A stretch of DNA of 36,382 nucleotides from a virus. Each line of letters opens with the position of its first letter. Positions within the stretch are counted from its first letter, which is position 1. The DNA is taken from IMG/VR virus record IMGVR_UViG_3300021093_000200, positions 1-36,382 of that record, one strand, 5' to 3'. The notes under the pieces are model-generated. The model made no database searches and was not told where the DNA came from. It saw only the letters and a program-made list of their open reading frames with translations. Shown in pieces: positions 1-36,382 of this stretch. A program made the translations under genes and the position numbers.

Positions 1-2
1 CT

Positions 3-3000
3 TCCGGTACTAGAGGAACCTCTGGTTCTTCTGGATCATCCGGTTCTTCAGGATCATCAGGTTCTTCAGGATCATCAGGTTCTTCAGGATCTTCCGGAAC
101 TTCAGGCTCATCAGGTTCTTCTGGATCTAGCGGAACAAGAGGTACTTCAGGAACTTCTGGCGAAACCCCTTCCGACGGATGTTGGAGTTGGGGTTCAAGT
201 GAGGCTGTTTCATCCGGCCAAATATTTGGGACTAATGGTGAAATCGGATCGAACGTTACATCTTTTTCTATAAGCGATACAGATTCAAACAGTAATAATG
301 TAGATGCCTTTCTGGATAGTGTTACGGTTGGCTCTGTAATGCGAGTTTTAATCAACGGGAAGCAATACAGATACCAGGTTACTTCCAACACCGACCAGGG
401 AACATATCACGTTTTTGGTGTTTCTTTTATTTCAGCTAACGCTTCAAATAATTTTCCCACCGCAGGAGATCAAGCTTGTTTAGATTTTGGGATTGCCGGA
501 TCTTCTGGCACTTCCGGGTCAAGCGGAAGTTCAGGAAGTTCAGGAAGCTCAGGTTCATCGGGTTCTTCTGGAACATCAGGTTCTTCTGGAACATCTGGTT
601 CTTCTGGATCTTCCGGTACTAGAGGAACCTCTGGTTCTTCTGGATCATCCGGTTCTTCAGGATCATCAGGTTCTTCAGGATCATCAGGTTCTTCAGGTTC
701 TTCAGGATCATCTGGATCATCAGGTTCTTCAGGATCATCAGGTTCTTCAGGATCATCTGGATCATCAGGTTCTTCAGGTTCTTCAGGATCATCAGGTTCT
801 TCAGGATCATCTGGATCATCTGGAACTTCTGGTTCTTCCGGAACATCTGGTTCATCAGGATCGTCAGGTTCTTCTGGATCATCAGGATCATCAGGTTCTT
901 CAGGATCATCAGGTTCTTCAGGATCATCAGGTTCTTCTGGATCATCGGGTAGTTCTGGATCTTCAGGAACTTCTGGATCTTCAGGAACTTCTGGATCTTC
1001 AGGAACTTCTGGATCATCCGGTTCTTCAGGATCTTCAGGATCATCGGGTTCTTCTGGATCATCAGGTTCTTCGGGATCATCGGGTTCTTCTGGATCATCC
1101 GGTTCTTCTGGATCATCCGGTTCTTCTGGATCGTCCGGTTCTTCTGGGTCATCTGGTACTTCTGGATCTTCAGGAACTTCTGGATCTTCAGGAACTTCTG
1201 GATCATCCGGTTCTTCTGGATCGTCCGGTTCTTCTGGATCATCAGGTTCTTCAGGATCATCCGGTTCTTCTGGATCATCCGGTTCTTCTGGATCATCCGG
1301 TTCTTCTGGATCGTCAGGTTCATCAGGAACTTCGGGAACTTCTGGTGTTACTGGAGCATCTGGTACTTCGGGAACTTCTGGATCTTCTGGAACATCAGGT
1401 TCTTCTGGAACATCTGGATCATCTGGGTCATCTGGTTCTTCAGGATCATCAGGTTCTTCAGGATCATCTGGATCATCAGGTTCTTCTGGAACTTCTGGTT
1501 CTTCAGGTTCTTCAGGTTCTTCAGGATCATCAGGTTCTTCTGGATCATCAGGTTCTTCTGGAACATCAGGTTCTTCTGGAACATCTGGTTCTTCTGGATC
1601 TTCCGGTACTAGAGGAACCTCTGGTTCTTCTGGATCATCCGGTTCTTCAGGATCATCAGGTTCTTCAGGATCATCAGGTTCTTCAGGTTCTTCAGGATCA
1701 TCTGGATCATCAGGTTCTTCTGGAACTTCTGGTTCTTCAGGTTCTTCAGGTTCTTCAGGATCATCAGGTTCTTCTGGAACATCAGGTTCTTCTGGAACAT
1801 CAGGTTCTTCTGGATCTTCCGGTACTAGAGGAACCTCTGGTTCTTCTGGATCATCCGGTTCTTCAGGATCATCAGGTTCTTCAGGATCATCAGGTTCTTC
1901 TGGATCATCCGGTTCTTCTGGATCCTCTGGAACATCTGGCTCATCGGGAACATCTGGTTCTTCTGGATCATCAGGTTCTTCTGGATCATCCGGTTCTTCA
2001 GGATCTTCAGGATCATCGGGTTCTTCTGGATCATCCGGTTCTTCAGGATCTTCAGGATCATCGGGTTCTTCTGGATCATCCGGTTCTTCTGGATCTTCTG
2101 GATCATCTGGTTCTTCTGGATCTTCTGGATCATCTGGTTCTTCCGGATCATCAGGTTCTTCAGGAACTCCTGGATCCTCTGGAACATCTGGCTCATCGGG
2201 AACATCTGGTTCTTCTGGATCATCAGGTTCTTCTGGATCTTCTGGATCATCTGGTTCTTCCGGATCATCAGGTTCTTCTGGGTCTTCTGGATCATCCGGT
2301 TCTTCAGGATCTTCAGGATCATCGGGTTCTTCTGGATCATCCGGTTCTTCAGGATCTTCAGGATCATCGGGTTCTTCTGGATCATCCGGTTCTTCTGGAT
2401 CTTCTGGATCATCTGGTTCTTCTGGATCTTCTGGATCATCTGGTTCTTCCGGATCATCAGGTTCTTCAGGAACTCCTGGATCCTCTGGAACATCTGGCTC
2501 ATCGGGAACATCTGGTTCTTCTGGATCATCAGGTTCTTCTGGATCTTCTGGATCATCTGGTTCTTCCGGATCATCAGGTTCTTCTGGGTCTTCTGGATCA
2601 TCCGGTTCTTCAGGATCTTCAGGATCATCGGGTTCTTCTGGATCATCCGGTTCTTCAGGATCTTCAGGATCATCGGGTTCTTCTGGATCATCCGGTTCTT
2701 CTGGATCTTCTGGATCATCTGGTTCTTCTGGATCTTCTGGATCATCTGGTTCTTCCGGATCATCAGGTTCTTCTGGTTCTTCCGGATCATCAGGAACTTC
2801 TGGTTCTTCGGGAACAAGAGGTACTTCTGGATCATCAGGTTCTTCTGGATCATCAGGTTCTTCAGGATCATCAGGTTCTTCTGGATCATCCGGTTCTTCC
2901 GGATCGTCCGGTTCTTCTGGTTCTTCTGGATCATCAGGATCTTCGGGAACATCTGGTTCTTCTGGATCGTCAGGTTCTTCTGGATCTTCTGGATCATCTG

Positions 3001-4397
3001 GTTCTTCTGGATCATCCGGTTCTTCTGGATCTTCTGGATCATCTGGTTCTTCCGGATCATCAGGTTCTTCTGGTTCTTCCGGATCATCAGGAACTTCTGG
3101 TTCTTCGGGAACAAGAGGTACTTCTGGATCATCAGGTTCTTCTGGATCATCAGGTTCTTCAGGATCATCAGGTTCTTCTGGATCATCCGGTTCTTCTGGA
3201 TCGTCCGGTTCTTCTGGTTCTTCTGGATCATCAGGATCTTCGGGAACATCTGGTTCTGTCACCTTATCTGGAACAACTGACAATGGTGTTTTAACCCTAA
3301 ATGGTTCTTCTCCTAATGTATCTGTTGAATCGAATATAACTTTTTCTTCCCCGACTTTAAATCTTCTTGGAACCCCAACAAATGCTTTAGGTGGCGGTCA
3401 AATTCATCTTTCAAATACAACATCAAATAGAATAGAGTTTTCTCCTTATCCTAATGCATCGGCGGGGAATGCTGGTCCTACTCCCACTAATGTTTCCACC
3501 GGAGAAAAGATAACATTGTGGTCTGGTATTAATGCTTCTAATGTAAACTACGCCTTTGGTACATATCCCCTCACTGGAAGACTTTGGTATTCTGTTCCAC
3601 AGGCAACCTCTTCTTTTGTTCATGCTTTCTACGGGGGAACAACAGAATTATTTAGGATTCAAGGAAATGGACAAATTCAATTAACGGCAGGAAGTGTTTC
3701 ATTGCCTTCTATCTCTGCTGGTTTAGCAAATTCTTCAGACACCAACACCGGAATTTACTTTCCGGCTGCCGACACAATTGGATTTGTTGAAGGTGGCGTA
3801 GAAGCGATGAGGATAGATTCTAATGGAAGAATTAATCTTCTGGCAGGGTCTGCTGCTAATCCGATCTTAAACGCTGGTCTAAATTCTACAGACACCAACA
3901 CCGGAATTTACTTTCCCTCAGCCGACAATATGGGTCTTGTGGCTGGTGGTACCGAGACTCTCAGATTGAATACAACGACCAACGCCAATATCCAGTTGGT
4001 TGCAGGATCTGCCACCGCACCAGTTCTTAACGCTGGTTTAAATTCTTCAGACACCAACACCGGAATTTACTTTCCGGCAGCTGATTCGATTGGATTTTCA
4101 ACAAATGGTACCAGTAGAGGTATTATTAATAACACAGGTTATGGAATTCAAACGTCACCAAGTGCATGGGTACATATATCATCAACACCATCATCCTCTA
4201 AATGGATAAGATTTGATGCCACGCGATATAGTAATACACCGCCCGTAAATCAGGTAGTTCCGCCAGAATATGCTATAGGTAGTGATGGTAGCGCTGAAAT
4301 GTATCTCAAAGAACCAGATGTTTGGATGGAAGTTATACTTGATTCAGCTGGTAAAGGTGGTGCTGTAGTTTTAATCCCTTGTTACAGGCCAGGTTAA
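3..4397 (+). CDS. Giant Gly-Ser-Ser-repeat tail fibre protein (5'-truncated by window edge)
   Basis: The frame is open from base 3, so the start lies outside the window; at least 1464 residues are visible. Order: a short GSS/GTS triplet tract (to about residue 53), a globular module with Cys-Trp near its start (about residues 54-164), a tract of roughly 300 G-S-S/G-T-S triplets with rare GTR, GTP and GVT interruptions, then a C-terminal region of about 380 residues. The C-terminal region holds three copies of a module with the motif DTNTGIYFP followed by a Gly-Gly-x-Glu turn, as in tail fibres of many environmental phages. The triplet tract is collagen-like in period but nearly free of proline. 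It probably forms a long shaft or a flexible Ser-rich stalk, with the C-terminus distal for host binding. Next to a SET protein and glycosyltransferases. Fibre role is inferred from architecture; no enzyme domain seen. Confidence 0.85.
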   Translation, partial: SGTRGTSGSSGSSGSSGSSGSSGSSGSSGSSGTSGSSGSSGSSGTRGTSGTSGETPSDGCWSWGSSEAVSSGQIFGTNGEIGSNVTSFSISDTDSNSNNVDAFLDSVTVGSVMRVLINGKQYRYQVTSNTDQGTYHVFGVSFISANASNNFPTAGDQACLDFGIAGSSGTSGSSGSSGSSGSSGSSGSSGTSGSSGTSGSSGSSGTRGTSGSSGSSGSSGSSGSSGSSGSSGSSGSSGSSGSSGSSGSSGSSGSSGSSGSSGSSGSSGSSGSSGTSGSSGTSGSSGSSGSSGSSGSSGSSGSSGSSGSSGSSGSSGSSGSSGTSGSSGTSGSSGTSGSSGSSGSSGSSGSSGSSGSSGSSGSSGSSGSSGSSGSSGSSGSSGSSGTSGSSGTSGSSGTSGSSGSSGSSGSSGSSGSSGSSGSSGSSGSSGSSGSSGSSGSSGTSGTSGVTGASGTSGTSGSSGTSGSSGTSGSSGSSGSSGSSGSSGSSGSSGSSGTSGSSGSSGSSGSSGSSGSSGSSGTSGSSGTSGSSGSSGTRGTSGSSGSSGSSGSSGSSGSSGSSGSSGSSGSSGSSGTSGSSGSSGSSGSSGSSGTSGSSGTSGSSGSSGTRGTSGSSGSSGSSGSSGSSGSSGSSGSSGSSGSSGTSGSSGTSGSSGSSGSSGSSGSSGSSGSSGSSGSSGSSGSSGSSGSSGSSGSSGSSGSSGSSGSSGSSGSSGSSGSSGTPGSSGTSGSSGTSGSSGSSGSSGSSGSSGSSGSSGSSGSSGSSGSSGSSGSSGSSGSSGSSGSSGSSGSSGSSGSSGSSGSSGSSGSSGSSGSSGSSGSSGTPGSSGTSGSSGTSGSSGSSGSSGSSGSSGSSGSSGSSGSSGSSGSSGSSGSSGSSGSSGSSGSSGSSGSSGSSGSSGSSGSSGSSGSSGSSGSSGSSGSSGSSGSSGTSGSSGTRGTSGSSGSSGSSGSSGSSGSSGSSGSSGSSGSSGSSGSSGSSGTSGSSGSSGSSGSSGSSGSSGSSGSSGSSGSSGSSGSSGSSGSSGSSGTSGSSGTRGTSGSSGSSGSSGSSGSSGSSGSSGSSGSSGSSGSSGSSGSSGTSGSVTLSGTTDNGVLTLNGSSPNVSVESNITFSSPTLNLLGTPTNALGGGQIHLSNTTSNRIEFSPYPNASAGNAGPTPTNVSTGEKITLWSGINASNVNYAFGTYPLTGRLWYSVPQATSSFVHAFYGGTTELFRIQGNGQIQLTAGSVSLPSISAGLANSSDTNTGIYFPAADTIGFVEGGVEAMRIDSNGRINLLAGSAANPILNAGLNSTDTNTGIYFPSADNMGLVAGGTETLRLNTTTNANIQLVAGSATAPVLNAGLNSSDTNTGIYFPAADSIGFSTNGTSRGIINNTGYGIQTSPSAWVHISSTPSSSKWIRFDATRYSNTPPVNQVVPPEYAIGSDGSAEMYLKEPDVWMEVILDSAGKGGAVVLIPCYRPG
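496..3258 (+). repeat. Long coding tract of 9-nt GGN-TCN-TCN (Gly-Ser-Ser) repeats
   Basis: About 300 consecutive 9-nt units encode Gly-Ser-Ser or Gly-Thr-Ser. Synonymous Ser codons (TCT, TCA, TCC, TCG) and Gly codons (GGA, GGT) alternate, giving higher-order blocks. A related short tract is at 3-160. The lack of stop triplets in the unit opens long artificial reading frames in other phases and on the minus strand. Confidence 0.95.
2163..2774 (+). repeat. 306-bp tandem duplication inside the Gly-Ser-Ser tract
   Basis: The rare block GGAACTCC (encoding Gly-Thr-Pro) occurs at 2163 and again at 2469, exactly 306 nt (102 codons) apart. The sequence following each copy matches closely until about 2770. 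A second pair based on GGAACAAGAG at 2811 and 3108 has a 297-nt spacing. Both indicate recent in-frame expansion of the shaft by unequal recombination. Confidence 0.8.
3736..4075 (+). repeat. Three 28-bp direct repeats in the fibre C-terminus
   Basis: An identical 28-base stretch starting CAGACACCAACACC occurs at 3736, 3889 and 4048 (spacings 153 and 159 nt). It encodes the DTNTGIYFP core of three tandem C-terminal modules. Confidence 0.85.
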
Positions 4398-4400
4398 TTT

Positions 4401-4961
4401 ATGATAACTGATCCTCAAATAATTCAAAAAATCAAAAATAGCGGAGCTATGGTTATAACAGTTGACTTAGAAGATTTTAAAAAGAAAATAAAGGGATATC
4501 ACCACCTAGGTGAAAATTACACATTGCCTGAAAATGTCTTTGTGTCAAAAGAAAAAATTTCACAATTAAGATCAGAACCTCCTCCACAAATAAATGTACC
4601 AACAAAAATAGAAATTAAGATATCAGAAGGAAAGGGAATGGGAGTTTTTGCAACTCAAAAAATTTCAAAGGGAGAAATAATTGAAACTTGCTATCTATTA
4701 AAAATACCAAAAGAAGGTGATCTTCTCACTGATTATAGATATCTTTATCCAAAAAGAACACTCTCCGAGTATGTTATTCCACTTGGATATGGATGTATTT
4801 ATAATCATTCCAATTCACCAAATGCTGATTGGATAGACCATCCCGAATATAAAGCTTTCAATTTCTTTGCTTTGGAAGATATAGAAATAGGAAAAGAGAT
4901 ATGTATTTATTACGGGGGTGAAGATTATTGGAATTCGAGAGAAAAGAAAAACATAATATAA
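4401..4961 (+). CDS. SET-domain protein, putative protein-lysine methyltransferase
   Basis: 186 residues. The SET signature is visible in order: KGMGVFATQKISKGEIIE (about residues 77-94), YNHSNSPNADW (about 132-142, the NHS motif that binds S-adenosylmethionine), and FFALEDIEIGKEICIYYG ending in Tyr-Trp (about 153-177), which matches the end of SET domains. The N-terminal 70 residues are not recognised. SET enzymes transfer methyl groups from AdoMet to lysine side chains. The start is 3 nt after the fibre stop, so co-expression with the fibre is likely. A substrate among virion proteins or host proteins is a guess. Assignment of the fold is firm; activity is inferred. Confidence 0.8.
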   Translation: MITDPQIIQKIKNSGAMVITVDLEDFKKKIKGYHHLGENYTLPENVFVSKEKISQLRSEPPPQINVPTKIEIKISEGKGMGVFATQKISKGEIIETCYLLKIPKEGDLLTDYRYLYPKRTLSEYVIPLGYGCIYNHSNSPNADWIDHPEYKAFNFFALEDIEIGKEICIYYGGEDYWNSREKKNII

Positions 4962-4975
4962 AAAAATATAAAAAT

Positions 4976-5284
4976 ATGGCAATTCAAGTTACAGGACTTT
5001 TTAAAAGTCCAACATCGCTTCTCATTCACGAGTCTCCTTTGTTGAAAATAAATGCACATCTTTCTTATAAAGGAGATTTAATGGTGGATCTTTTTGTTAC
5101 CTCATCTGATGGAATTTGTAGGGATACAGTGGTTTACCCCGATTTAAACAGAGAGACATTAACTTTCGACGTCAATATTTCTGATCCTTATGATCGGTTG
5201 ATAAACGGATTGGAAACTTTTCTTATAACGGAACTACAATCTTCAAATTCTATCAACTCCACTTCTACTTTCAGCAGGGTATGA
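4976..5284 (+). CDS. Small hypothetical protein downstream of fibre
   Basis: 102 residues starting MAIQVTGLFKSP. The ATG at 4976 follows an A/T-rich leader and is preferred to an in-frame ATG at 4928 that would overlap the SET gene. It looks like a compact beta-rich domain without signal peptide or membrane segment; small proteins starting this way are common beside fibre genes of T4-like environmental phages, but no function is recognised. Its stop overlaps the next start (ATGA at 5281), so the two are translationally coupled. Confidence 0.7.
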   Translation: MAIQVTGLFKSPTSLLIHESPLLKINAHLSYKGDLMVDLFVTSSDGICRDTVVYPDLNRETLTFDVNISDPYDRLINGLETFLITELQSSNSINSTSTFSRV

Positions 5285-5547
5285 ATACAACAGATTCCAC
5301 ACAGCAAACAATTACCTCCGAAGAATTAAATAAAATTCAGGATTTGAAATCCACCGGTGAAAAATTTATAATTGAGTTTGGATCTTTGGAATTGGAGATG
5401 TTGGTTCTATCTCAAAGAAAAAAAGATTTAGAGGATAAATTCATGAAATTCAAAATCGAGGAAAAGAACTTCATGGGAATGATGGATTACAAGTACGGAA
5501 ACGTTAATTTGGATATAGAAACAGGAATTCTCACTCCTAGAAATTAA
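5281..5547 (+). CDS. Small coiled-coil protein, paralogue of the protein at 6795
   Basis: 88 residues, charged and helical, with heptad-like Leu/Ile spacing across residues 14-65. It shares an N-terminal SEEL-x-K-[IV]-Q pattern and a C-terminal KYG-x-[GV]-x-[LI]-D-x-x-TGI motif with the protein at 6795-7085, so the two are paralogues. The ATGA overlap with the preceding gene suggests coupling. Function unknown; possible small structural or chaperone-like protein of the fibre/glycosylation region. Confidence 0.7.
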   Translation: MNTTDSTQQTITSEELNKIQDLKSTGEKFIIEFGSLELEMLVLSQRKKDLEDKFMKFKIEEKNFMGMMDYKYGNVNLDIETGILTPRN

Positions 5548-5564
5548 AGACATCAATTTTAATT
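5542..5564. terminator. Possible bidirectional hairpin between convergent genes
   Basis: AATTAAA (5542-5548) and TTTAATT (5558-5564) form a 7-bp inverted repeat with a 9-nt loop, exactly where the plus-strand gene ending at 5547 meets the minus-strand gene ending at 5559. The stem is A/T only and short, so this is weak evidence for a shared terminator. Confidence 0.25.
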
Positions 5565-6704
5565 CAGGAGTTCACGGTAAACTTCTGCCATTTTTTCTCC
5601 AGCCGAAAACCATGTATATTTCTGGCATGTTTTTCTTCCCTGCTCTCTGAAATAATCTTTTCTTTCTTCCGACAAATTCAAGAATTCTAAAAATCCTTGT
5701 TCGATCCCTTCTACCGTGGGATCAACAAAAATAGAATTTTCTGAATTAACGAAATCTGATAACCCGTCTCTTCTGGAAGAAAGTAAAACGCAATTAGAGG
5801 CCATCGCCTCCAAGGCAACCAGTCCAAATGGTTCGTGAACAGATGGCATAATAACTCCATCGGCATCGTTCAAGACATGAATTTTTTCTGAACCGTGTTT
5901 TGGACCCAAATAAAACATGTTCTTTTTTCCCTCCTGAAGTTTTTGATCCAAAAGTTTATTGCACAATAAATCTCCCCCATCGGGAGAACCAATGATCCAA
6001 AGTTCAATGCCGTCTGGGATATTGGCTTCCAATAATTTATCCACTCCCTTCATCTCGCAAAACCGTCCGATATAAACAATTTTATTTTTTTTCTTTTTGG
6101 GATTTGGGTTGTTTGATTTCCATTTTTTAAGGTCAATTCCATTTGGGACCAAGGACATCTTGGACGAAAATTCTGGAAATATATCGAGATAAAATTTAGA
6201 TATGGTGATAATTCGATCGGACCATCTCAAAAATCCAGTTTCCATTTCCAATAAAGTTTCTTGAATTGTTTTCCCGTCTTTTGTTGTTGGATCAAGGGCA
6301 ATATTCAAATTCCTATGGATCTGCCCTCTTATTGCCAAATTTAAAGAGCACACCAAAGGAACATTGAAGTGATTAGACAAATGTCCACCGGGCATGTATA
6401 CCGGCCAGTCGTACGCGTGCACCAAATCTGGTTTTGGCATACCCAATGATGTGACAAAGAAATTAATTTGATGTGCCAAATTGAAAACCAAAGGGTTTAT
6501 ATTTCCACCGTTTGTTGGAACAAAACTCGGAAAAATTTGTTTGGTATTTGGAAATTCAAAACCAGAAGAAAGATGGGGAAAGCAAATGGTGTGTAATTCA
6601 AATTCGGAACTCAATTCATCGTGTAAGGCTAAATATTGATAGCCTAATCCTCCCATAGGTTTTTCCAATCTATCTGGAATTAAACTTAAAATTCTTTTTT
6701 TCAT
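5559..6704 (-). CDS. GT4-family glycosyltransferase (glycogen/starch-synthase-like GT-B fold)
   Basis: 381 residues. The N-terminal half has the GGLGYQYLALHDEL donor-loop region typical of glycogen-synthase-like GT4 enzymes. The C-terminal half has VYIGRFCEMKGVDKLLEA and the E-x7-E nucleotide-sugar binding motif in EPFGLVALEAMASNC, followed by a Ser-Arg-Arg-Asp-Gly loop. It should transfer a sugar from a nucleotide-sugar donor with retention; donor and acceptor cannot be read from sequence. No membrane segment. It is the only minus-strand gene in the window, flanked by the two paralogous small proteins, as if inserted between them. Likely partners are the other glycosyltransferases at 7069 and 8127. 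Confidence 0.88.
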   Translation of the reverse strand: MKKRILSLIPDRLEKPMGGLGYQYLALHDELSSEFELHTICFPHLSSGFEFPNTKQIFPSFVPTNGGNINPLVFNLAHQINFFVTSLGMPKPDLVHAYDWPVYMPGGHLSNHFNVPLVCSLNLAIRGQIHRNLNIALDPTTKDGKTIQETLLEMETGFLRWSDRIITISKFYLDIFPEFSSKMSLVPNGIDLKKWKSNNPNPKKKKNKIVYIGRFCEMKGVDKLLEANIPDGIELWIIGSPDGGDLLCNKLLDQKLQEGKKNMFYLGPKHGSEKIHVLNDADGVIMPSVHEPFGLVALEAMASNCVLLSSRRDGLSDFVNSENSIFVDPTVEGIEQGFLEFLNLSEERKDYFREQGRKTCQKYTWFSAGEKMAEVYRELLN

Positions 6705-6740
6705 TCTTCCATTTGAACTTTTATGAATTTGAAAAATAAA

Positions 6741-6780
6741 AATTTCAAAAGAGGGATGAAATAATTACCCAATTTCAAAA
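6741..6780. repeat. 10-bp direct repeats in a divergent intergenic region
   Basis: AATTTCAAAA occurs at 6741-6750 and 6771-6780, exactly 30 bp apart, in the 90-bp region between divergent genes. The first copy also overlaps a 7-bp inverted repeat TTTGAAA (6728-6734)/TTTCAAA (6743-6749). This may be an operator or promoter region; the low-complexity AT background makes chance possible. Confidence 0.3.
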
Positions 6781-6794
6781 TAAAAGAATTTGCT

Positions 6795-7085
6795 ATGGAA
6801 AATCAAATTAAATTAAGTTCAGAAGAACTAGAAAAGGTTCAATCTCTAAGAAACGAGGCTCGTGAAAACGTTGACAAAATAGGTCGCATGAACATCCAAC
6901 ATCATTTTCTGACCGAGGAAATCAGATTTGTTGAAGAACAACTTCAGTCTTTATATGGAGAAACGTCGGATATCAAAAAAAGAGAACAAGAATTGGTGAA
7001 CAATATTGTATCTAAATACGGTGAAGGGCAATTGGATTTCAACACCGGAATTTATTCCCAAAACCAAGATGAAAAGCCCAACTGA
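6795..7085 (+). CDS. Small coiled-coil protein, paralogue of the protein at 5281
   Basis: 96 residues. Mostly helical and charged with coiled-coil spacing (residues 10-75), ending with KYGEGQLDFNTGIYS, the same KYG...D..TGI motif found in the 5281 protein. The last 17 nt overlap the start of the downstream glycosyltransferase, so expression is coupled to it. Function unknown. Confidence 0.7.
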   Translation: MENQIKLSSEELEKVQSLRNEARENVDKIGRMNIQHHFLTEEIRFVEEQLQSLYGETSDIKKREQELVNNIVSKYGEGQLDFNTGIYSQNQDEKPN

Positions 7086-8130
7086 TACCCTGCGAAGAAC
7101 AAAATATCACCTTCATAGAATTTTAAGTTCTGTTGAAAATTCTATCCTCGAAGAATCTGGAAATAAACCCAGAATTCTTTTTGTTGCTCCGCACCTTTCA
7201 ACTGGGGGGATGCCTCAGTATCTTTATAAGTGCATCGAGAAACTTTTGCCAGAAGGAGAAATCTATTGTGTAGAATACAATAACCTATCGGACGAATTTG
7301 TAGTTCAAAGACAAAGAATACAAAATTTATTGGGGGAAAATTATTTTAGAATAGACACAGAAGACAAAAGTGAATTTCTAGAAATTGTGGAAAGGGTTTG
7401 CCCAGACGTCATCCACTTCCAAGACTTTGTGGAATTCTTCGTTGGTGATGATATTTGTCGAAAAATATTCTCCCCAGACAGACCTTGGTTTATTTTTGAA
7501 ACGTGTCACTCTTCAAATGTTAAAATTTTGGACAAATTCTGGGCTCCTGATAAATTGGTGATGGTAAATAAATGGATGACCGAAGTTTTTAAAAGTTCTG
7601 GTTTCGAATTGGATATCTTGGAATATCCCATAGAAGATTTTATCGGGATTGGAAAAGAAAGTGCCAGGGAACAACTTGGTTTAGACCCAAACAAAAAACA
7701 TGTTATTAACATCGGTCTTTTCACCCCAGGTAAAAATCAAGGGGAACTCATGGAATACGCCAGACTACTAGAAAATGAACAAATAGAATTTCATTTCATT
7801 GGTAATTTGGCGGGTAACTTTCAAGAATATTGGGAGCCTCTGATGAAGAATGTTCCAAGAAATTGCAGAATTTGGGGGGAAAGACACGATACTGACCTAT
7901 TTTATGAAGCATCCGATTTGTTTGTTTTCTCCTCGATTTGGGAATTGAACCCGATTGTTATAAAGGAATCTCTTTCTTGGAATTTACCCATACTAATGAG
8001 GAGATTGCCTTCTTACATGGACGACTACGACGAAACCCCCTTAGTTCATTTTTATTCAAACCAAGAGCCTGTGACTGATCATGAATACAATGTTGAACTA
8101 ATTCGAAAAATTTTGAATTTACCATCATGA
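7069..8130 (+). CDS. GT4-like glycosyltransferase (GT-B fold)
   Basis: 353 residues from the ATG at 7069; an upstream TTG at 7006 would extend it deep into the preceding gene and is less likely. Motifs: VAPHLSTGGMPQYLYK near residue 36 (N-terminal GT-B loop), NIGLFTPGKNQGELMEYARL near residue 215 (start of the C-terminal Rossmann domain), and EASDLFVFSSIWELNPIVIK with a downstream Glu-Ser pair near residue 282, corresponding to the donor-binding region of GT4 enzymes. No signal or membrane segment. The stop overlaps the next start (ATGA at 8127), so it forms a unit with the O-heptosyltransferase. Donor and acceptor unknown. Confidence 0.8.
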   Translation: MKSPTDTLRRTKYHLHRILSSVENSILEESGNKPRILFVAPHLSTGGMPQYLYKCIEKLLPEGEIYCVEYNNLSDEFVVQRQRIQNLLGENYFRIDTEDKSEFLEIVERVCPDVIHFQDFVEFFVGDDICRKIFSPDRPWFIFETCHSSNVKILDKFWAPDKLVMVNKWMTEVFKSSGFELDILEYPIEDFIGIGKESAREQLGLDPNKKHVINIGLFTPGKNQGELMEYARLLENEQIEFHFIGNLAGNFQEYWEPLMKNVPRNCRIWGERHDTDLFYEASDLFVFSSIWELNPIVIKESLSWNLPILMRRLPSYMDDYDETPLVHFYSNQEPVTDHEYNVELIRKILNLPS

Positions 8131-9308
8131 AAAAAAGTGGGATAGAAATTTACAGAAATATCAACAAAAATAAAAACGTACACGTTCCTGAACAAATCCA
8201 ATTTCAATTTTCTTATGATTATTCTCCAAAAATAGATTTGAAGGGAAATGATCCAAAGAGTGAAAGAAATATAAAATTCATTGATCCAACCACTTCGGAG
8301 TGTGTCCACGAAAGTACTTTGAAGCCTGGTCATTTTACCTCCCTTTTTCGAAGATGGTTTACCCCCTGGTTAGTGGAAGGTTATGATCGTGAAAATAAGG
8401 TTTGGTCTTTAGATTTCGAGTCTACTTTGTTTGGGGGAAAAATTTTGATATCAATAGATTCTTCTTCATTAGGAGACACAATTGCATGGTTACCTGTGAT
8501 TGATCAACTAAGAAAAAAATACAAGGCACAATTAATCGTTACAACATTTTGGAATGAAATTATGTCACACTTTTTCCCCCAAATTAAATTTTCACCCCCT
8601 GGATTTAGGGATCCAGCTGCCAATGTGGTGTTTGGGGTAGGATGGTATGAAGAAGACGATAGGAACATACACCGGCGTGATCCGAGATCAATTTCTTTGC
8701 AACAAGTTGCAGGTGACTTAATTGGTGTCGAAGTAAATTCGGATATTTTACCTTCTCAAATTCCGGGATGGCTGGAGACAACTAAATCGAGGTTTGAAGG
8801 AAAATATGTTTGTATTGCCACCGAGTCCACGGCAAATGCAAAACATTGGCACTATCCAGGAGGTTGGCAAACTTTGGTTGATCATCTCGAATCAATTGGA
8901 TATGAAGTGGTGGTGATTCACAGCCAACAAAATACTTTGGATGGAGTTGTTGATAAAACCGGAACTATAGACATGACCGACCGAATGATAGATTTATATC
9001 ATGCAGATTTTTTCGTCGGTATTGGATCCGGTTTATCTTGGCTGGCTTGGGCTTTGAGAAAACCAGTGGTAATGATTTCTGGATTTTCTTCTCCCCATTG
9101 TGAATTTTCTCATTTGAATTATAGAGTAATTAATTTCGATGTGTGCCATGGGTGTTTCAACGACGTTAGACACAAATTCGATCGTGGAGATTGGAATTGG
9201 TGTCCTAGACTCAAGAACACAGAAAGAATGTTTGAGTGTACAACACAAATCACCCCCGATATGGTAATTTCAAAAATCCAAAATTTAATGTCCGAACAGA
9301 AATTGTAA
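8127..9308 (+). CDS. TibC/Aah-like O-heptosyltransferase (GT9-related)
   Basis: 393 residues. The central part has an ADP-heptose-transferase-type GT-B core: GGKILISIDSSSLGDTIAWL (about residue 102), IATESTANAKHWHYPGGW (about 230), and FVGIGSGLSWLAWALRKPVV (about 294). The C-terminus has four cysteines at residues 340, 343, 359 and 371 (C-x2-C-x15-C-x11-C). This resembles the iron-binding finger of bacterial autotransporter heptosyltransferases such as TibC, which add heptose to Ser side chains of autotransporter repeats. That family is usually bacterial. Here it lies downstream of a Ser/Thr-saturated fibre, and a heptose kinase gene begins at 35680. Modification of the fibre is an inference. 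A related heptosyltransferase with another acceptor remains possible. Confidence 0.8.
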   Translation: MKKSGIEIYRNINKNKNVHVPEQIQFQFSYDYSPKIDLKGNDPKSERNIKFIDPTTSECVHESTLKPGHFTSLFRRWFTPWLVEGYDRENKVWSLDFESTLFGGKILISIDSSSLGDTIAWLPVIDQLRKKYKAQLIVTTFWNEIMSHFFPQIKFSPPGFRDPAANVVFGVGWYEEDDRNIHRRDPRSISLQQVAGDLIGVEVNSDILPSQIPGWLETTKSRFEGKYVCIATESTANAKHWHYPGGWQTLVDHLESIGYEVVVIHSQQNTLDGVVDKTGTIDMTDRMIDLYHADFFVGIGSGLSWLAWALRKPVVMISGFSSPHCEFSHLNYRVINFDVCHGCFNDVRHKFDRGDWNWCPRLKNTERMFECTTQITPDMVISKIQNLMSEQKL

Positions 9309-9327
9309 CCTCTGTTAGATATTTGGT

Positions 9328-9336
9328 GATATATAC
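9328..9336 (+). promoter_or_regulatory. Candidate phage late promoter GATATATAC
   Basis: GATATATAC ends 35 nt upstream of the neck-protein ATG at 9372. The same octamer GATATATA recurs before most structural units (14524, 14575, 20704, 25623, 28041) with no shared -35 element, as in T4-type late promoters. Confidence 0.6.
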
Positions 9337-9371
9337 AAGAAAAGCCCTCCTTTTCGAAGTAATCGCCTTAC

Positions 9372-11921
9372 ATGTCAGCCATTCCCCCTAACAAAGCTAT
9401 CTTTACTGGACTTCCCGTATATAATGGGAATGGTCAACAGAGAAATTTATCGGATCCTAGATATAGATATCAGGACGATTTACCTAATACTGCCAAGGTT
9501 CAAGAGACAAGCACGGATAATCTTTACGGAACAACCGGTGCTGCTTTGGCCAGAGCAATTCAAATAGGTTGCAATGGTTATCATACGGTTTTGGCTTCAA
9601 ACGGAACGTATTATTATGCTCCTTGTCAATCGCAGGAATGGCTAATTGAAAGGTTGACCCAGTTAGACTCTGCCCTGAATTTTACCTATATAGGAAACTA
9701 CAGAGTTCTAAGTTATGATCAACCTTTTTATTATGTTAGTTCTTTCAATGGATGGATTATTGATTCAGCTTCATCTTTAGAGGGATATAGTGTGAATTTA
9801 AATTCCGTATCGAACGCAAATGTCTCCAATGGTATTGCAATTGATTTTAGATATTCCGTCGATGGTGAAACTTGGTCTCTTTGGGTAAATATGGGGTTTG
9901 CAACAACGGGATTACAAAATTCTTATGAGTCAGGTGAAGGAGCAGAAGTGTTTACGATACAATTGGATCCAAGCAAGCCATTTTACCCCGAGTTTAGATT
10001 CACGTCCGTTGTCGTAAATCCGGACGGGAGTATAGCCTATCAATCAGAAGAACCAATCAGTCCAAATGTAGTCATTGTTAATTTCGATTTGAATTTAACT
10101 TATGATGCTAATGTGCCGACTGGCCCTGATAATTTAGTTATTAGAAACCCAGTTCCTCAATGTTCTCCTGAACAATCAAATCGCCCTGTGGTATTTAACG
10201 AGTGTGGACCTTTCACATTCAATCCTTATAACATCAATAAGGCAATCAATCTTTACAAGGATCTAAGTTTGATTGTCAACAAAATGTTTGGATTTGAAAC
10301 CAATTACTATTCTGTTCAACCTCAGTCCAGATCAAAAGACGTGGTACTCAAAGAATGGACTTTGTATGACGTGGTGGAAGAAAGATGCGTTAAAGTGCTG
10401 GTTCCGCAAAACCAATTTCCTGACAATAAACCCAACTATGACCCGTTTGGCATTTCTTTCGAAGAGCCATTCGAAATACACATTGACAAGGTATATTTTG
10501 AAAGTCTTTTTGGTCGTGGTTCACAACCCCGTAAAAGGGATATCCTTTATTTTCCTCTCACCAATAGAATTTATGAAATCAATTCTACCTATTTGTTCAG
10601 AGACTTCATGTATTCCCCGATTTATTTCAAAATTGAATTGAAAAAATATAATCCGAAATCTAACACTTACTTCAGAGATCCTGCCTACAAAGAAGAACTA
10701 GACGGAATAGCTTTAAATTCTCAAAAATTGTTTGGTGCGGAAACCGAGGCTCAGGAGGAATTAATCACCAAACCCCAGCAATACGAAACGACCACGATCG
10801 ACCGAGGGAACGACCCCACCCGATCGTACGTGTACGAAAAACTTCCCATTGTAAGTTACGATTTGAACAACAACTGGACTATTGTGTTTAACAATTATTA
10901 TGATTTATATGATGCTTTCCAATCTAATCCAGAATTTGTATTTGAACCGAATAAATATAGAAATGGGGTGAGATATTTAACTACCCCTAAATTAGATTCT
11001 GATGGAGAAATAGCTTTTACATGCTGGTTTTCAATTAAAAATTATGTAAACGAAAATTCTCTAACTAAAAAACCTTATCCCCCTGTCCCGATGGCTCAGG
11101 AAACGGTAACCCCAACAAGAATTGTTTACAACACTACTCCTTATAAACATGGACTTTCTCCGTGGCTTGGCTATGCTGAAAATCCAGATGGATATGTTGC
11201 AATAAAATCAGATTTAAATCACTCCGGTGGATTTCAGGTGGCTTCTGTGATTGACCAATTCAAATTTTCCGTCGTCAATCCTAATTTACCTTTTTCATTA
11301 GATACCCCTACCCTTAAGATGCAAAAAGCACAGGCTAGAAATTTGATTGCAGGAGATTATTTGGACCCAAATGATGGACCACAAGGTCTTAGAGTAGATT
11401 TAATTTATTCTGGTTCACAAGAATACAACAACACGAATTTTCTTCAGGAGGGCAGCATTCAAATAAATTTGAATGATTTTGTTTTCAATTCGAAGCTACA
11501 ATTCATACCAGAAATAGGGGAATGGTATGGATTGGTTGTAAATATTTCTAATAAATATCACCAGATGGGTGTCAATATGTGGAAGATGAGTTACGATGTG
11601 AATAACCCACAGGAACAATCTTCTAATCTAATCCCGGTCCATGAAGATTTTAGAACTTTGTCCCAAACATATACTTTCGACTTACCTAAAGATATTGTTA
11701 CTAATCCAGCCAACCCCCTATATGGAACAGACAACAATGCCTATAGGATATATACTTCGCCCGTTTTGCTTTCCAATATTCGAATTTTCAAATCGATGAT
11801 AGATATAAACAAACAATCGATTGTGTTGAACCAAAACATCGTGAGGGATGCACAACTGGCTCACATAATCGACAACGCCAAACCAACTTTGGCAATTCCT
11901 AAAATTCCCAGAAAGGGTTAA
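9372..11921 (+). CDS. Neck-like structural protein with gp14-type domain and C-terminal LamG-like region
   Basis: 849 residues. About residues 310-430 include KEWTLYDVVEERCVKVLVPQ and RDILYFPLTNRIYEINSTYL followed by a Phe/Tyr-rich strand, a pattern like T4 neck protein gp14. The genome order supports this: in T4, gp13-gp14-gp15-gp16-gp17 precede sheath and tube, and here small and large terminase follow. The N-terminal 250 residues look beta-rich and partly fibronectin-like. From about residue 530 the sequence resembles a LamG/concanavalin-like jelly roll (FTCWFSIKNYV, WYGLVVNISNKYHQMGVNMW, LLSNIRIFKS). It is far longer than T4 gp14. Neck role is moderate confidence; the lectin-like part may be decoration or carbohydrate binding. 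Confidence 0.55.
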   Translation: MSAIPPNKAIFTGLPVYNGNGQQRNLSDPRYRYQDDLPNTAKVQETSTDNLYGTTGAALARAIQIGCNGYHTVLASNGTYYYAPCQSQEWLIERLTQLDSALNFTYIGNYRVLSYDQPFYYVSSFNGWIIDSASSLEGYSVNLNSVSNANVSNGIAIDFRYSVDGETWSLWVNMGFATTGLQNSYESGEGAEVFTIQLDPSKPFYPEFRFTSVVVNPDGSIAYQSEEPISPNVVIVNFDLNLTYDANVPTGPDNLVIRNPVPQCSPEQSNRPVVFNECGPFTFNPYNINKAINLYKDLSLIVNKMFGFETNYYSVQPQSRSKDVVLKEWTLYDVVEERCVKVLVPQNQFPDNKPNYDPFGISFEEPFEIHIDKVYFESLFGRGSQPRKRDILYFPLTNRIYEINSTYLFRDFMYSPIYFKIELKKYNPKSNTYFRDPAYKEELDGIALNSQKLFGAETEAQEELITKPQQYETTTIDRGNDPTRSYVYEKLPIVSYDLNNNWTIVFNNYYDLYDAFQSNPEFVFEPNKYRNGVRYLTTPKLDSDGEIAFTCWFSIKNYVNENSLTKKPYPPVPMAQETVTPTRIVYNTTPYKHGLSPWLGYAENPDGYVAIKSDLNHSGGFQVASVIDQFKFSVVNPNLPFSLDTPTLKMQKAQARNLIAGDYLDPNDGPQGLRVDLIYSGSQEYNNTNFLQEGSIQINLNDFVFNSKLQFIPEIGEWYGLVVNISNKYHQMGVNMWKMSYDVNNPQEQSSNLIPVHEDFRTLSQTYTFDLPKDIVTNPANPLYGTDNNAYRIYTSPVLLSNIRIFKSMIDINKQSIVLNQNIVRDAQLAHIIDNAKPTLAIPKIPRKG

Positions 11922-32439: not shown

Positions 32440-34065
32440 ATGGCAGGATTTAATGAGAACCCAAACACCAACCCTGTATTCCAAAGAATTAGGGACTCGA
32501 TCAAAAATCTGAGCAATTTCGGATTGAGATATGGAGACATGGTGGTCAAAAATTCACAGGCAATTGGTACCACAGAAGCAGAATTTTTAAAGAAAGGTCC
32601 GATTGAAGATGAAACTACACTTTTCTCTTTAGGTAGACAAGATACGACTACCAGACAGTATATTTCATATTTTGATAAAGACTATGCAGGAAAAAGAGAT
32701 TATCTAAGAAAATTTTCTTTAAATCCTGAGATTGAATACATTTTGGATACGGTCTGCGACGAGGCAATTTCCTATGATGGATTTAATTTTTTCGCATATC
32801 CAGCCTTCTTAAACATTATTGGAATTAAAAAAGATGTTTCAGATAAAATTGATTCGACGTACAAAAAATTGTACGACATGTTTGGTTTCAATGACGATAT
32901 TTCTGCATGGCAATATTTCAGACAACTCCTTGTTGATGGTTTCGTTGCTTTCGAAATCGTATACGATGACAAGGGGAAAAATATTATTGGTTTCAAAGAA
33001 CTAGACGCAACCACCCTTATGCCTTCCGTAGAAAAGCAAAAAGATGGAACCTTTTTAAATGTTTGGTATCAATATCCTAAGGACGAAAGAAAAAGGAGAA
33101 TGCTTTACGATTCCCAAATCATTTATCTTTCTTATGCCAAAGGCAATACTGTTTCAAGAGTAAGTTATTCAGAAAGATTGATTCGTCCGTACAATGTTCT
33201 CAGGATCATTGAATACACCCGTGTTATTTGGTCTGTGATGAATGCATCATTCCGTCTAAAAATGACAGTCCCAGTGGGGTCCAGATCGCAACAAAAGGCT
33301 ATGCAAACCCTTGGCGAGTTGATGTCCATATACAAAGAAGATATTCAATTCAACGATGAAAGTGGGGAACTTTCGGTAAATGGTCAGCCAAAAATTCAAT
33401 TTTACAAAAATTATCTTATGCCTAAGGGAGCTTTAGGTACTCCAAATATTGAACCCCTTAACACCGCCGGACCAAATTTGAATGATCCAGCTCCTTTGGC
33501 TTATTTTTTCGACAAGTTGGTTCAAGAATCTAAAATTCCATTTTCTAGATTCCAAGGACCAGATGGTGGATCGATTGGTAAATATGCCAATGCAGCCGAA
33601 GGATTGGATAAAGAGGAAATTAGATTCGCAAAGTTTATCATGAGATTAAGATCCGTTTTCCAGGACATTCTTATAAAACCTTTGTGGATTCAATTGTGTA
33701 GAGATTTTCCGCAATTGGAGAAAGATTATATGTTCAGAAGTCAACTTGGATTAACTTTTGTTTCGGATAATCCATTCAGAGTGAATCAGGAAATAGAAAC
33801 GATGAACAAAAGGAAAGAATCCATAGATGCCATGTATGGATTGGTGGACGGAGAAGGACAGCCTTTCTTTTCTTTGGGTTATCTAATTGAAAATTTTCTA
33901 GGAATGACTGAGGATGATATCAAAGCCAATGAAGAAGCTAAAGAGAAGACCAAGAATAAAAAATCAAAAGAAACTCCAGAAGGTGGAGAAGGCGCTGAAG
34001 GTGGTGATTCAGAAGCAGGAACTGAACCAGAAGGATCCCCGCCAGAAACAGAAACACCGGCATAA
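32440..34065 (+). CDS. Portal protein 1 (gp20-like)
   Basis: 541 residues, near T4 gp20 (524). Conserved blocks: YISYFDKDYAGKRDYLRKFS (about residue 75), EIEYILDTVCDEAI (about 96), IVYDDKGKNIIGFKELDATT (about 173), SYAKGNTVSRVSYSERLIRP (about 233), VMNASFRLKM and IPFSRFQGPDGGSIGKYANA with the following EEIRFAKFIMRLR (about 366-405). It forms the dodecameric ring through which DNA enters the head. The C-terminal 45 residues are acidic and Pro/Gly/Glu-rich. A second portal gene follows after 2 nt. Confidence 0.93.
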   Translation: MAGFNENPNTNPVFQRIRDSIKNLSNFGLRYGDMVVKNSQAIGTTEAEFLKKGPIEDETTLFSLGRQDTTTRQYISYFDKDYAGKRDYLRKFSLNPEIEYILDTVCDEAISYDGFNFFAYPAFLNIIGIKKDVSDKIDSTYKKLYDMFGFNDDISAWQYFRQLLVDGFVAFEIVYDDKGKNIIGFKELDATTLMPSVEKQKDGTFLNVWYQYPKDERKRRMLYDSQIIYLSYAKGNTVSRVSYSERLIRPYNVLRIIEYTRVIWSVMNASFRLKMTVPVGSRSQQKAMQTLGELMSIYKEDIQFNDESGELSVNGQPKIQFYKNYLMPKGALGTPNIEPLNTAGPNLNDPAPLAYFFDKLVQESKIPFSRFQGPDGGSIGKYANAAEGLDKEEIRFAKFIMRLRSVFQDILIKPLWIQLCRDFPQLEKDYMFRSQLGLTFVSDNPFRVNQEIETMNKRKESIDAMYGLVDGEGQPFFSLGYLIENFLGMTEDDIKANEEAKEKTKNKKSKETPEGGEGAEGGDSEAGTEPEGSPPETETPA

Positions 34066-34067
34066 TT

Positions 34068-35669
34068 ATGGCAGGATTTAACGATGATAACAGTCAACAG
34101 CGTTCCTTTTTAGGAAATCTGTACCGAAACCTATCTAAAATTGGAAGGTTTGGTATGCAGTACGAGGATATGGTTATCCGGAATTCTCAGGCTATAGGGG
34201 CAACCGAATCTACCTTTTTCAACAATGAAGGAACTGGATTTACCGAGAATGACGCTTTCTTCTGGACTTTAGGTTATCAAGATACTAGAGTAAGAAAATA
34301 CATAGCCTATTTCGACAAGGATTATCTCGGGAAAAGAGAATTCTTAAGAAAATTTGCTTTAAACGGAGAAATTGATTTCATTCTGGATACTTTATCAGAC
34401 GATGCTATCAACTACGACGACAAAAATTTCTTCGGGTATCCATCTTTATTAAATGTTGATTTAAAACCCGAAGTCCGTTCTAAGGTAGAAGAAAATTTCA
34501 GAACTTTGTACATGCTGTTTGGTTTTCAACAAAGTACTCTTGCCTGGCAGTATTTTCGTCAATTTCTAATTGATGGTTTTTTGGCTTTTGAAATTGTGTA
34601 CTCGACAGATGGAAAAAAAATTGTTGGTTTCAAAGAATTAGATGCCACCTCTCTTCAACCTGCAACTGAACAACAGCCCAACAAAGAATTTCAACAAATC
34701 TGGATTCAATATCCGGGTGATCCTAGAATGACCAGAAAATTAAAGGCAGAGCAGGTCATTTATCTTTCCTATGCCAAGGGTAATTCCGTTTCCAGAGTCA
34801 GCTACACTGAAAGGCTGATCAGATCTTATAACATTCTGAGAATCATGGAAAATACTCGGGTAATTTGGAATGTCATGAACGCTTCGTATCGTTTGAAATT
34901 CGTTATTCCTGTTGGAACACAATCCGGACAAAAAGCTATGCAAACCCTGGGACAGCTGATGTCTCAGTATAAAGAAGAAATTCAAATTAATGATACTTCC
35001 GGGGAATTGACTGTCAATGGTGCCCCCAGAGTACAGTTTTACAAAAATTATCTCTTTCCGGAAAAAGACGGGGAATCGCCAGACATTAACACTTTAAATC
35101 CAAATGGTCCCGATTTTAACGTGATGGAAAATGTTGTTTATTTTTACAACAAGCTAAAATTAGACTCCAAAATTCCATATGCTAGGTTTGCTGGGAGAAG
35201 TGGTCCTGCCACCTATCAAATATCAATCGACCAGTTAGAAAGAGACGAAATTAGATACGAAAAATTTGTTACCCGTTTGAGATCTATTTTCCAAGAACTT
35301 TTGGTTAAACCTCTTTATATCCAAACTTGTTTGGATTTTCCTGCCTTGTCTGAAGACAGATCATTTAAAGTAAATTTGGGTTTGAACTTCGTTAAAGAAA
35401 ATGTTTTCGAACAACTAATTGTTTTATCTAACTACACGAAAAGAACGACATTTATCACCGCATTGGGAGATATGAAACAAAAAATCGGAGAAGAGGAAGT
35501 TCCATATTTCGATAAGGAGTGGTTAATAAAAAGATGGCTTGGTTTGAGTATGGACGAATATAGAGAGAACGAAAAATTCAAAAAAGACGAAAAGAAACAA
35601 GCGGACAAGGCCAAAAAGGATAAAGGGGAAGGTGGGGAATCAGCAGATGCACCAGATTTCACTCTTTAA
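34068..35669 (+). CDS. Portal protein 2 (gp20-like paralogue)
   Basis: 533 residues, homologous to portal 1 throughout: MAGFN start, YIAYFDKDYLGKREFLRKFA, IVYSTDGKKIVGFKELDATS, LSYAKGNSVSRVSYTERLIR, VMNASYRLKFVIPVG, KIPYARFAGRSG followed by RDEIRYEKFVTRLRSIFQEL. All main blocks are intact, so it is not a decaying copy. Differences concentrate in loops (the region equivalent to the Gly-rich loop near residue 375 and the C-terminus, which here is Lys/Asp-rich). The two may form a mixed ring or serve different roles. Confidence 0.92.
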   Translation: MAGFNDDNSQQRSFLGNLYRNLSKIGRFGMQYEDMVIRNSQAIGATESTFFNNEGTGFTENDAFFWTLGYQDTRVRKYIAYFDKDYLGKREFLRKFALNGEIDFILDTLSDDAINYDDKNFFGYPSLLNVDLKPEVRSKVEENFRTLYMLFGFQQSTLAWQYFRQFLIDGFLAFEIVYSTDGKKIVGFKELDATSLQPATEQQPNKEFQQIWIQYPGDPRMTRKLKAEQVIYLSYAKGNSVSRVSYTERLIRSYNILRIMENTRVIWNVMNASYRLKFVIPVGTQSGQKAMQTLGQLMSQYKEEIQINDTSGELTVNGAPRVQFYKNYLFPEKDGESPDINTLNPNGPDFNVMENVVYFYNKLKLDSKIPYARFAGRSGPATYQISIDQLERDEIRYEKFVTRLRSIFQELLVKPLYIQTCLDFPALSEDRSFKVNLGLNFVKENVFEQLIVLSNYTKRTTFITALGDMKQKIGEEEVPYFDKEWLIKRWLGLSMDEYRENEKFKKDEKKQADKAKKDKGEGGESADAPDFTL

Positions 35670-35679
35670 ATTTCAATAA

Positions 35680-36382
35680 ATGAATTTCAAAGAATTATTT
35701 TCAACACAAAAAATTCTTGTTGTGGGTGATTCCATTTTGGATCACTATGTGTATGGAAAAGTTCACAGGGTATCTCCAGAAGCACCAGTTCCGGTTGTTC
35801 TTAAGAACAAAGAAGAATTTTTCCTGGGCGGGGCGGCAAATGTAGCACAGAACATCACGACATTCGGAGCCAATTGTACCCTGTTATCTTTGGTTGGTGA
35901 TGATGAAGATGGAAAAATTTTGTTTGAAAAATGTATCGAGAAAAAAATCAATCCTATTTTTATCGAAGAAGAATCCAGACCAACAACAAAAAAAACCAGA
36001 GTAATAGGGAACAAACATCAAATCGTTAGAATTGATGTTGAAACAACTTGTGATTTATTAGAAAACTCAACTTCAAAAATTATTGAAATTTTCGACGAAC
36101 AGATTCAATTTCACGATGGAGTTATTTTTCAAGATTATGGGAAAGGATTACTAACGAATTATGTTTTAGCGTCTCTAATTGAAATAGCGAAAAAATACTC
36201 GAAAAAGATTTTGGTAGATCCTAAAGTGGCAGATCTTGGGCGATATCAAGGAATCGATCTGATCAAGCCAAATCTGAGTGAATTTAAGGCTATGGTGAAT
36301 ATCAAATCTGAAGAAGATTTAGAAATTGACCAGATTGTAAATTATGCCCAATTGGTGATGGAAGAATTCGACTACCAATATT
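35680..36382 (+). CDS. D-glycero-D-manno-heptose-7-phosphate kinase, HldE/RfaE-like (3'-truncated by window edge)
   Basis: 234 residues visible; the gene continues past the window. The PfkB-type start ILVVGDSILDHYVYGKVHRV, then SPEAPVPVV and FFLGGAANVAQNI, closely follows the HldE/RfaE kinase domain, including the SPEAPVPVV segment. Later IFQDYGKGLL (about residue 150), LVDPKVADL (about 180) and IKPNLSEF (about 195) are also conserved. The catalytic GAGD region would lie outside. The enzyme phosphorylates heptose-7-phosphate at C1 on the way to ADP- or GDP-heptose. Whether a nucleotidyltransferase domain follows cannot be seen. With the O-heptosyltransferase at 8127 it suggests phage-directed heptose use. 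Confidence 0.88.
   Translation, partial: MNFKELFSTQKILVVGDSILDHYVYGKVHRVSPEAPVPVVLKNKEEFFLGGAANVAQNITTFGANCTLLSLVGDDEDGKILFEKCIEKKINPIFIEEESRPTTKKTRVIGNKHQIVRIDVETTCDLLENSTSKIIEIFDEQIQFHDGVIFQDYGKGLLTNYVLASLIEIAKKYSKKILVDPKVADLGRYQGIDLIKPNLSEFKAMVNIKSEEDLEIDQIVNYAQLVMEEFDYQY

What the first reader, a model, noticed from the sequence alone, without database searches (positions are those of the whole stretch)
3..9308. Candidate phage-encoded glycosylation system for a Ser/Thr-saturated fibre
A fibre with about 300 Gly-Ser-Ser/Gly-Thr-Ser triplets is followed by two GT4-type glycosyltransferases and a TibC/Aah-like O-heptosyltransferase, and a heptose kinase lies at 35680. TibC-type enzymes modify Ser residues in repeats of bacterial autotransporters. 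The parsimonious reading is that the phage decorates its own fibre shaft with heptose and perhaps extends the glycan, which could stiffen the shaft, protect against proteases or alter host recognition. I know of no described phage system of this kind.
Basis: partly seen in the sequence, partly recalled or inferred. Interest (0 to 1): 0.88.

Follow-up and report, generated by a model that had tools for sequence, protein, structure and literature searches.

The report
Phage sugar-coating system for serine-rich fibres
This virus of bacteria carries, beside the gene for a very long glycine-serine tail fibre, a sugar-attaching enzyme of a family known from bacterial adhesins; the same enzyme sits beside serine/threonine-rich fibre genes in many unrelated phages, so these phages probably sugar-coat their own fibres.

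Summary
3-4397 encodes a collagen-like fibre (270 GSS + 42 GTS triplets, cut by the contig end). 5559-6704(-) and 7069-8130 are GT4 glycosyltransferases. 8127-9308 is a genuine BAHT (TibC/Aah-type protein O-heptosyltransferase): above the curated cut-off, PDB TibC E=1e-56, modelled fold TM 0.82 to TibC, catalytic Asp and four iron-finger Cys kept. BAHT occurs in 21/50 viral records sampled only for GSS/GTS repeats, 0/50 random-pattern records and 0/42 records with Pro-rich collagen repeats. 78/79 viral loci found through the 7069 GT4 also carry a BAHT. The module lies beside Ser/Thr-triplet structural genes in several unrelated phage backbones, in one isolate (Microcystis phage Mel-JY01) and in some methanotroph chromosomes. 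Best explanation (about 0.8): a phage-encoded O-glycosylation system for Gly-Ser/Thr fibre shafts. Weak points: no glycan has been observed; the sugar may not be heptose everywhere (the adenine-contacting Arg is lost in many relatives); the BAHT oligomerisation thumb is shortened; the heptose kinase is distant, unlinked and confined to this clade. Virion glycosylation by phage enzymes is already known in mycobacteriophages; this enzyme-substrate pairing was not found in the literature I could search.

The parts
3..4397 (+). Collagen-like Gly-Ser-Ser/Gly-Thr-Ser fibre (5' end beyond the contig); repeat runs at about 6-167 and 489-3260, tail-fibre-like C-terminal part about 3267-4394
5559..6704 (-). 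GT4 glycosyltransferase (GT4a); present in the closest relatives only (55-98% identity), antisense to the operon
   Evidence: Pfam PF00534 E 1e-21
7069..8130 (+). GT4 glycosyltransferase (GT4b), conserved partner of the BAHT; stop overlaps the BAHT start codon
   Evidence: Pfam PF00534 E 5e-11; 39-74% identity across phages; 78/79 GT4b loci carry BAHT; start codon
8127..9308 (+). BAHT, TibC/Aah-type protein O-heptosyltransferase; D117 = TibC D110, T235 = T226, K239 = K230, R286 = R286, W305 = W305, C340/C343/C359/C371 = iron finger
   Evidence: TIGR04414 261.9 bits; PDB 4rap E 1e-56; model TM 0.82 to TibC; residues
4401..4961 (+). SET-domain protein directly downstream of the fibre, putative protein methyltransferase (role in this system unknown)
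   Evidence: Pfam PF00856 E 6e-12
35680..36382 (+). HldE/RfaE-type heptose-7-phosphate kinase domain (cut by the window end); possible but unproven donor-supply gene
   Evidence: TIGR02198 240.9 bits on the cut gene; PDB 4e84 E 1e-40; full gene

Best explanation
The phage encodes a cytoplasmic O-glycosylation system for its own fibre. Inferred order: during late expression the BAHT (8127-9308) takes a nucleotide sugar, most likely ADP-heptose from a Gram-negative host, and attaches it to Ser/Thr hydroxyls in the Gly-Ser/Thr-X shaft, before or while the chains assemble. The neighbouring GT4b (7069-8130), and perhaps GT4a, extend or cap the sugar. In relatives the GT4b homologue is fused to an FkbM-type methyltransferase, suggesting a methylated cap. 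Because the shaft has almost no proline, the sugars may supply the solvation and stiffness that (hydroxy)proline gives collagen, and may shield the shaft from proteases or unspecific binding. Shown here: the gene identities, the conserved active-site and iron-site residues, the repeated adjacency, and the specificity of the association for Ser/Thr-rich rather than Pro-rich triplets. Inferred: the acceptor sites, the sugar and the physical effect.
For: BAHT identity. Catalytic D and W305 in 73/73 and all four iron-finger Cys in 72/73 distinct relatives. BAHT in 21/50 GSS/GTS records vs 0/50 random-pattern and 0/42 Pro-type collagen records; Fisher p 7e-8 and 3e-7, still significant within size classes. 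GT4 domains 25/50 vs 3/50. 49/79 BAHT loci have a long triplet run within 10 kb vs 0/80 control loci. 41/50 BAHT records match the collagen family. GT4b and BAHT co-occur in 78/79 loci. Order GT4b - GT4-BAHT fusion - GXY gene in other backbones. A cultured phage, Mel-JY01, has a GSS/GTS ORF next to a BAHT fusion. Methylobacter/Methylococcaceae have a putative secreted GTS/GTA protein directly upstream of BAHT. On the tree, the repeat-associated BAHTs fall apart from the TibC/Caballeronia group.
Against: No glycan, peptide or activity data. 29/50 GSS records lack a detected BAHT, although many are fragments. 34/79 GT4b loci have no run of 8 or more triplets within the flanks; in several of these the adjacent giant ORF has only short runs or another Ser-rich repeat. 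Some BAHT-linked fibres are mostly GAQ/GAK/GDK; in most of these a few GSSGTSG islands remain, but none is seen in two short truncated fragments. In TibC the thumb residues F265/V266 build the dodecamer; the thumb is about 10 residues shorter here, so assembly and substrate handling may differ. LR756504 has a distant BAHT and no collagen match. Counts are not phylogenetically independent.
Confidence: 0.8

Rival explanations
1. The enzymes glycosylate a different virion protein (for example the neck-like 849-aa protein at 9372-11921 directly downstream, or other tail proteins), and the GSS fibre is merely a neighbour in the late tail module.
For: In the window clade the BAHT abuts the neck-like gene and lies about 3.7 kb from the fibre gene. 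Some BAHT/GT4b loci have no long triplet runs.
Against: The neck-like gene is not found beside BAHTs of the other backbones by sequence, whereas Ser/Thr-triplet genes are. The association is specific for Ser/Thr rather than Pro triplets. Chromosomal BAHTs sit next to GTS/GTA proteins with no phage genes nearby.
Confidence: 0.08
2. The glycosyltransferases modify the host envelope (LPS seroconversion, superinfection exclusion).
For: Phages are known to use glycosyltransferases this way (general knowledge); GT9-fold enzymes include LPS heptosyltransferases.
Against: The sequence belongs to the protein-acting TIGR04414 family (262 bits) rather than LPS heptosyltransferase families (32 bits or less); fold match to TibC 0.82 vs about 0.5 for WaaC/WaaF; iron finger kept; linkage to late structural genes and Ser/Thr fibres.
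Confidence: 0.05
3. The glycosyltransferases decorate hypermodified phage DNA.
For: T4-like phages glucosylate hydroxymethylcytosine; a dCMP deaminase lies in the window.
Against: The BAHT family acts on Ser of proteins (PMC4358343); the genes are in the tail region; the association with fibre repeat type is not expected.
Confidence: 0.03

Closest known systems
BAHT family: TibC (TibA), Aah (AIDA-I); Yao et al. 2014, PMC4358343
   Same: Sequence family, fold, catalytic Asp-110, Lys-230, Trp-305, four-Cys iron finger; gene neighbouring a repetitive Ser-rich surface/fibre protein.
   Different: Substrate is a Gly-Ser/Thr-X collagen-like fibre instead of a beta-helical autotransporter; thumb about 10 residues shorter; often fused to a GT4 domain in phages; obligate-looking GT4b partner; TibC Pro-300 is Gly here.
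Mycobacteriophage capsid/tail-tube glycosylation (Freeman et al. 2023, read only as cited in PMC12619734)
   Same: Phage-encoded glycosyltransferases modify the phage's own virion proteins.
   Different: Capsid and tail-tube C-termini; no BAHT or collagen-like fibre mentioned in the citation.
Bacillus BclA collagen-like exosporium glycoprotein (PMC8968730)
   Same: Collagen-like triplets modified with sugars, thought to aid hydration of the helix.
   Different: Bacterial spore protein; no BAHT is described there.
Mimivirus collagen glycosylation (R699, PMC9546862)
   Same: A virus encodes collagen-like proteins and an enzyme that glycosylates collagen.
   Different: Sugar on hydroxylysine, made by other enzyme families, in a eukaryotic virus.

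Membership tests
BAHT (TIGR04414) | Score above the curated model cut-off | tested here: met
   261.9 bits vs 200
BAHT (TIGR04414) | Catalytic base Asp-110 and donor-binding Thr-226, Lys-230, Arg-286, Trp-305 | tested here: met
   All five aligned in the window protein; in relatives Arg-286 is often Thr/Ile/Val
BAHT (TIGR04414) | Iron finger with four Cys | tested here: met
   C340, C343, C359, C371; 72/73 distinct relatives keep all
BAHT (TIGR04414) | Overall TibC fold | tested here: met
   Model pLDDT 90, TM 0.82 to 4rap/4rb4
BAHT (TIGR04414) | Beta-hairpin thumb that builds the dodecamer | tested here: not met
   Region about 10 residues shorter than TibC, F265/V266 hydrophobic pair not kept. 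A feature of TibC structure and assembly rather than of the family model; oligomeric state untested
BAHT (TIGR04414) | Adjacent autotransporter substrate | tested here: not met
   Adjacent structural genes are collagen-like fibres, not autotransporters
BAHT (TIGR04414) | Transfers heptose from ADP-heptose to Ser | not testable with these tools
   needs enzyme assay
Collagen-like (PF01391) protein | Long uninterrupted Gly-X-Y repeats | tested here: met
   329 triplets, E 1e-136
Collagen-like (PF01391) protein | Triple helix formation | not testable with these tools
   Pro almost absent (2 GTP triplets); polyglycine-II-like packing is an alternative
ADP-heptose pathway (HldE kinase) | Kinase domain with HldE signature and catalytic GAGD | tested here: met
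   (full gene in the sister contig L105)
ADP-heptose pathway (HldE kinase) | Other pathway genes encoded nearby or in the phage | tested here: not met
   No gmhA in the clade; adenylyltransferase-type matches only in a few larger relatives and mostly weak or partial; kinase flanked by portal and DNA ligase genes. Records are fragments

The most novel reading that the evidence does not exclude
A widespread phage (and partly bacterial) O-glycosylation module, GT4b plus BAHT with optional FkbM methyltransferase, is dedicated to Gly-Ser/Thr-X triplet shafts, with sugar replacing the structural role of proline/hydroxyproline in collagen-like fibres. It would be a branch of the BAHT family distinct from the autotransporter branch and possibly use other sugars in some phages.
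Probability: 0.55. Interest if true: 0.88.

Novelty: new variant of a known kind. Interest (0 to 1): 0.8.

Why it matters
It gives a function to some of the glycosyltransferases abundant in large aquatic phages, which are usually read as DNA- or LPS-modifying. It predicts that extremely long Ser-rich phage fibres are glycoproteins, links the BAHT family to a second kind of substrate, and can be tested at once in a cultured phage (Mel-JY01) and in E. coli co-expression. It would also suggest how collagen-like shafts without proline can be stable. At least 569 IMG/VR stretches encode a GT4b relative (scan stopped at its limit), so the system would be common.

Tried and rejected
Kinase as part of an ADP-heptose operon: neighbours are ligase, clamp-loader-like ATPase and 5'-3' exonuclease genes, no gmhA; rejected as linked, kept as possible. 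A scrambled codon pattern as control gave only 4 records, so a different random pattern was used. tblastn of a GSS peptide against phage records failed, probably because of the low-complexity filter. The low-Ser/Thr fibres were suspected to break the rule; most carry GSSGTSG islands, two short fragments do not, so this is left open. Promoter scan of 4300-9500 found no excess over shuffles. Literature searches for BAHT or heptosyltransferase genes with phages found no description of this system; the library lacks most subscription papers.

Full report
What is there. The window is a whole IMG/VR record of 36,382 bases from a T4-type myovirus: two T4-type portal proteins, large terminase, sheath, tail tubes, late sigma factor. 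Its first ORF, open at the contig edge, is a collagen-like fibre with 270 GSS and 42 GTS triplets; 97% of X/Y positions are Ser or Thr. Third codon positions vary 43-56% while first and second positions vary 0-17%, so the amino-acid repeat is maintained and is not just recent DNA expansion. The C-terminal non-repeat part matches tail-fibre families on its own. Downstream come a SET-domain gene, small ORFs, a minus-strand GT4, GT4b (start ATG 7069) and the BAHT at 8127-9308.

Enzyme identity. The 8127 product exceeds the curated cut-off of TIGR04414, aligns with TibC over 349 residues at E 1e-56 and its predicted model (pLDDT 90) superposes on TibC with TM 0.82, against about 0.5 for the LPS heptosyltransferases WaaC/WaaF. 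TibC residues shown by mutation to matter (D110, K230, R286, W305 and the iron-finger cysteines; PMC4358343) are all present. Among 73 distinct phage and record sequences D110 and W305 are invariant and the four cysteines are kept in 72. Two differences stand out: Arg-286, which contacts adenine in TibC, is kept in the window clade but replaced in many others, so donor choice may vary; and the thumb that holds the TibC dodecamer together is about ten residues shorter.

Co-occurrence. 79 viral loci with BAHT relatives were fetched. 49 carry a run of at least 8 Gly-X-Y triplets within the fetched flanks, against 0 of 80 control loci; 41 of 50 whole records match the collagen family. The reverse test started from a DNA pattern for GSSGTSGSSG and ignored enzymes: 21 of 50 records encode a BAHT above cut-off. 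Controls: 0 of 50 records chosen with an unrelated pattern and 0 of 42 records with Pro-type collagen repeats. The difference holds within size classes. GT4 domains are likewise enriched, 25/50 vs 3/50. Starting instead from GT4b, 78 of 79 loci have a BAHT nearby, including 56 of 57 outside the window's clade. Counts are not independent samples of phylogeny, but the module appears in phages that do not share the window's terminase or sheath by sequence, with the order GT4b, GT4-BAHT fusion, GXY gene. GT4b homologues there carry an FkbM methyltransferase domain.

Isolate and bacteria. Microcystis phage Mel-JY01 encodes, on the plus strand at 2-3049 of its record, a GSS/GTS protein that its depositors annotated as antisense ORFs, followed by a structural protein and a 1,226-residue GT4...BAHT fusion annotated as FkbM methyltransferase. 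The 735-kb phage LR756501 also has both features. In Methylobacter and other Methylococcaceae a BAHT lies directly downstream of a gene for a putative secreted protein with GTS/GTA triplets. In the tree these group with phage BAHTs, apart from TibC, Pelosinus and Caballeronia enzymes.

What does not fit. Not every GSS fibre record has a BAHT, and not every BAHT/GT4b locus has a long triplet run; some have giant fibres with short Gly-Thr/Ser runs and two have Ser-Asp-like repeats. Some fibres are mostly GAQ/GDK; in most of these scattered GSSGTSG islands remain, while two short truncated fragments show none. The heptose kinase is intact in sister contigs but sits between portal and ligase genes and is limited to the window clade, with a shortened form in some members, so it may raise donor supply or may be unrelated.

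Reading. The most likely function is O-glycosylation of the Ser/Thr triplet shaft. Enzyme class, active-site integrity and specific genomic association are shown; modification, sugar, sites and benefit are inferred. Phage-encoded virion glycosylation is known from mycobacteriophages (cited in PMC12619734) and collagen glycosylation from Bacillus BclA (PMC8968730) and mimivirus (PMC9546862). I found no paper combining BAHT with phage fibres, within an incomplete library.

Noticed in passing
4401-4961: A SET-domain (putative protein lysine methyltransferase) gene follows the fibre stop directly; in the homologous region it was found only in near-identical relatives.
   Followed up: partly
L542, L543, L549, L528, L524 (Methylobacter, Methylococcaceae, Polaromonas, Gammaproteobacteria): Bacterial contigs carry a BAHT next to a Gly-Thr/Ser-triplet protein, in several cases with a signal-peptide-like start and no phage genes seen nearby.
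   Followed up: partly
L521 (PP395634.1) 2-3049 +: Microcystis phage Mel-JY01: the GSS/GTS fibre-like ORF is annotated on the wrong strand as two hypothetical proteins; the BAHT fusion is annotated as FkbM methyltransferase.
   Followed up: yes
L621 and L622, about 883-2247: GT4b/BAHT loci with a SVSESDSV repeat ORF (53% Ser+Thr) instead of Gly-X-Y triplets, reminiscent of Ser-Asp repeat adhesins; the coding strand is not certain.
   Followed up: no
L015 1-3204: A 230-kb relative has a long NTTGxNNTAVGxxSL repeat protein upstream of the BAHT region instead of GSS triplets near it.
   Followed up: no
L078 4986-7667: Phage genes for RmlD-like reductase and UDP-galactopyranose mutase between the GT4b gene and the BAHT fusion, suggesting phage-made sugar nucleotides.
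   Followed up: partly
32440-35669: Two consecutive T4-type portal (gp20) genes, both Pfam Portal_T4 E about 1e-59.
   Followed up: no
L112 and L113 (G024, G021): The heptose kinase is shortened (about 260 aa, middle part missing) in some relatives, hinting at changed or lost function.
   Followed up: partly
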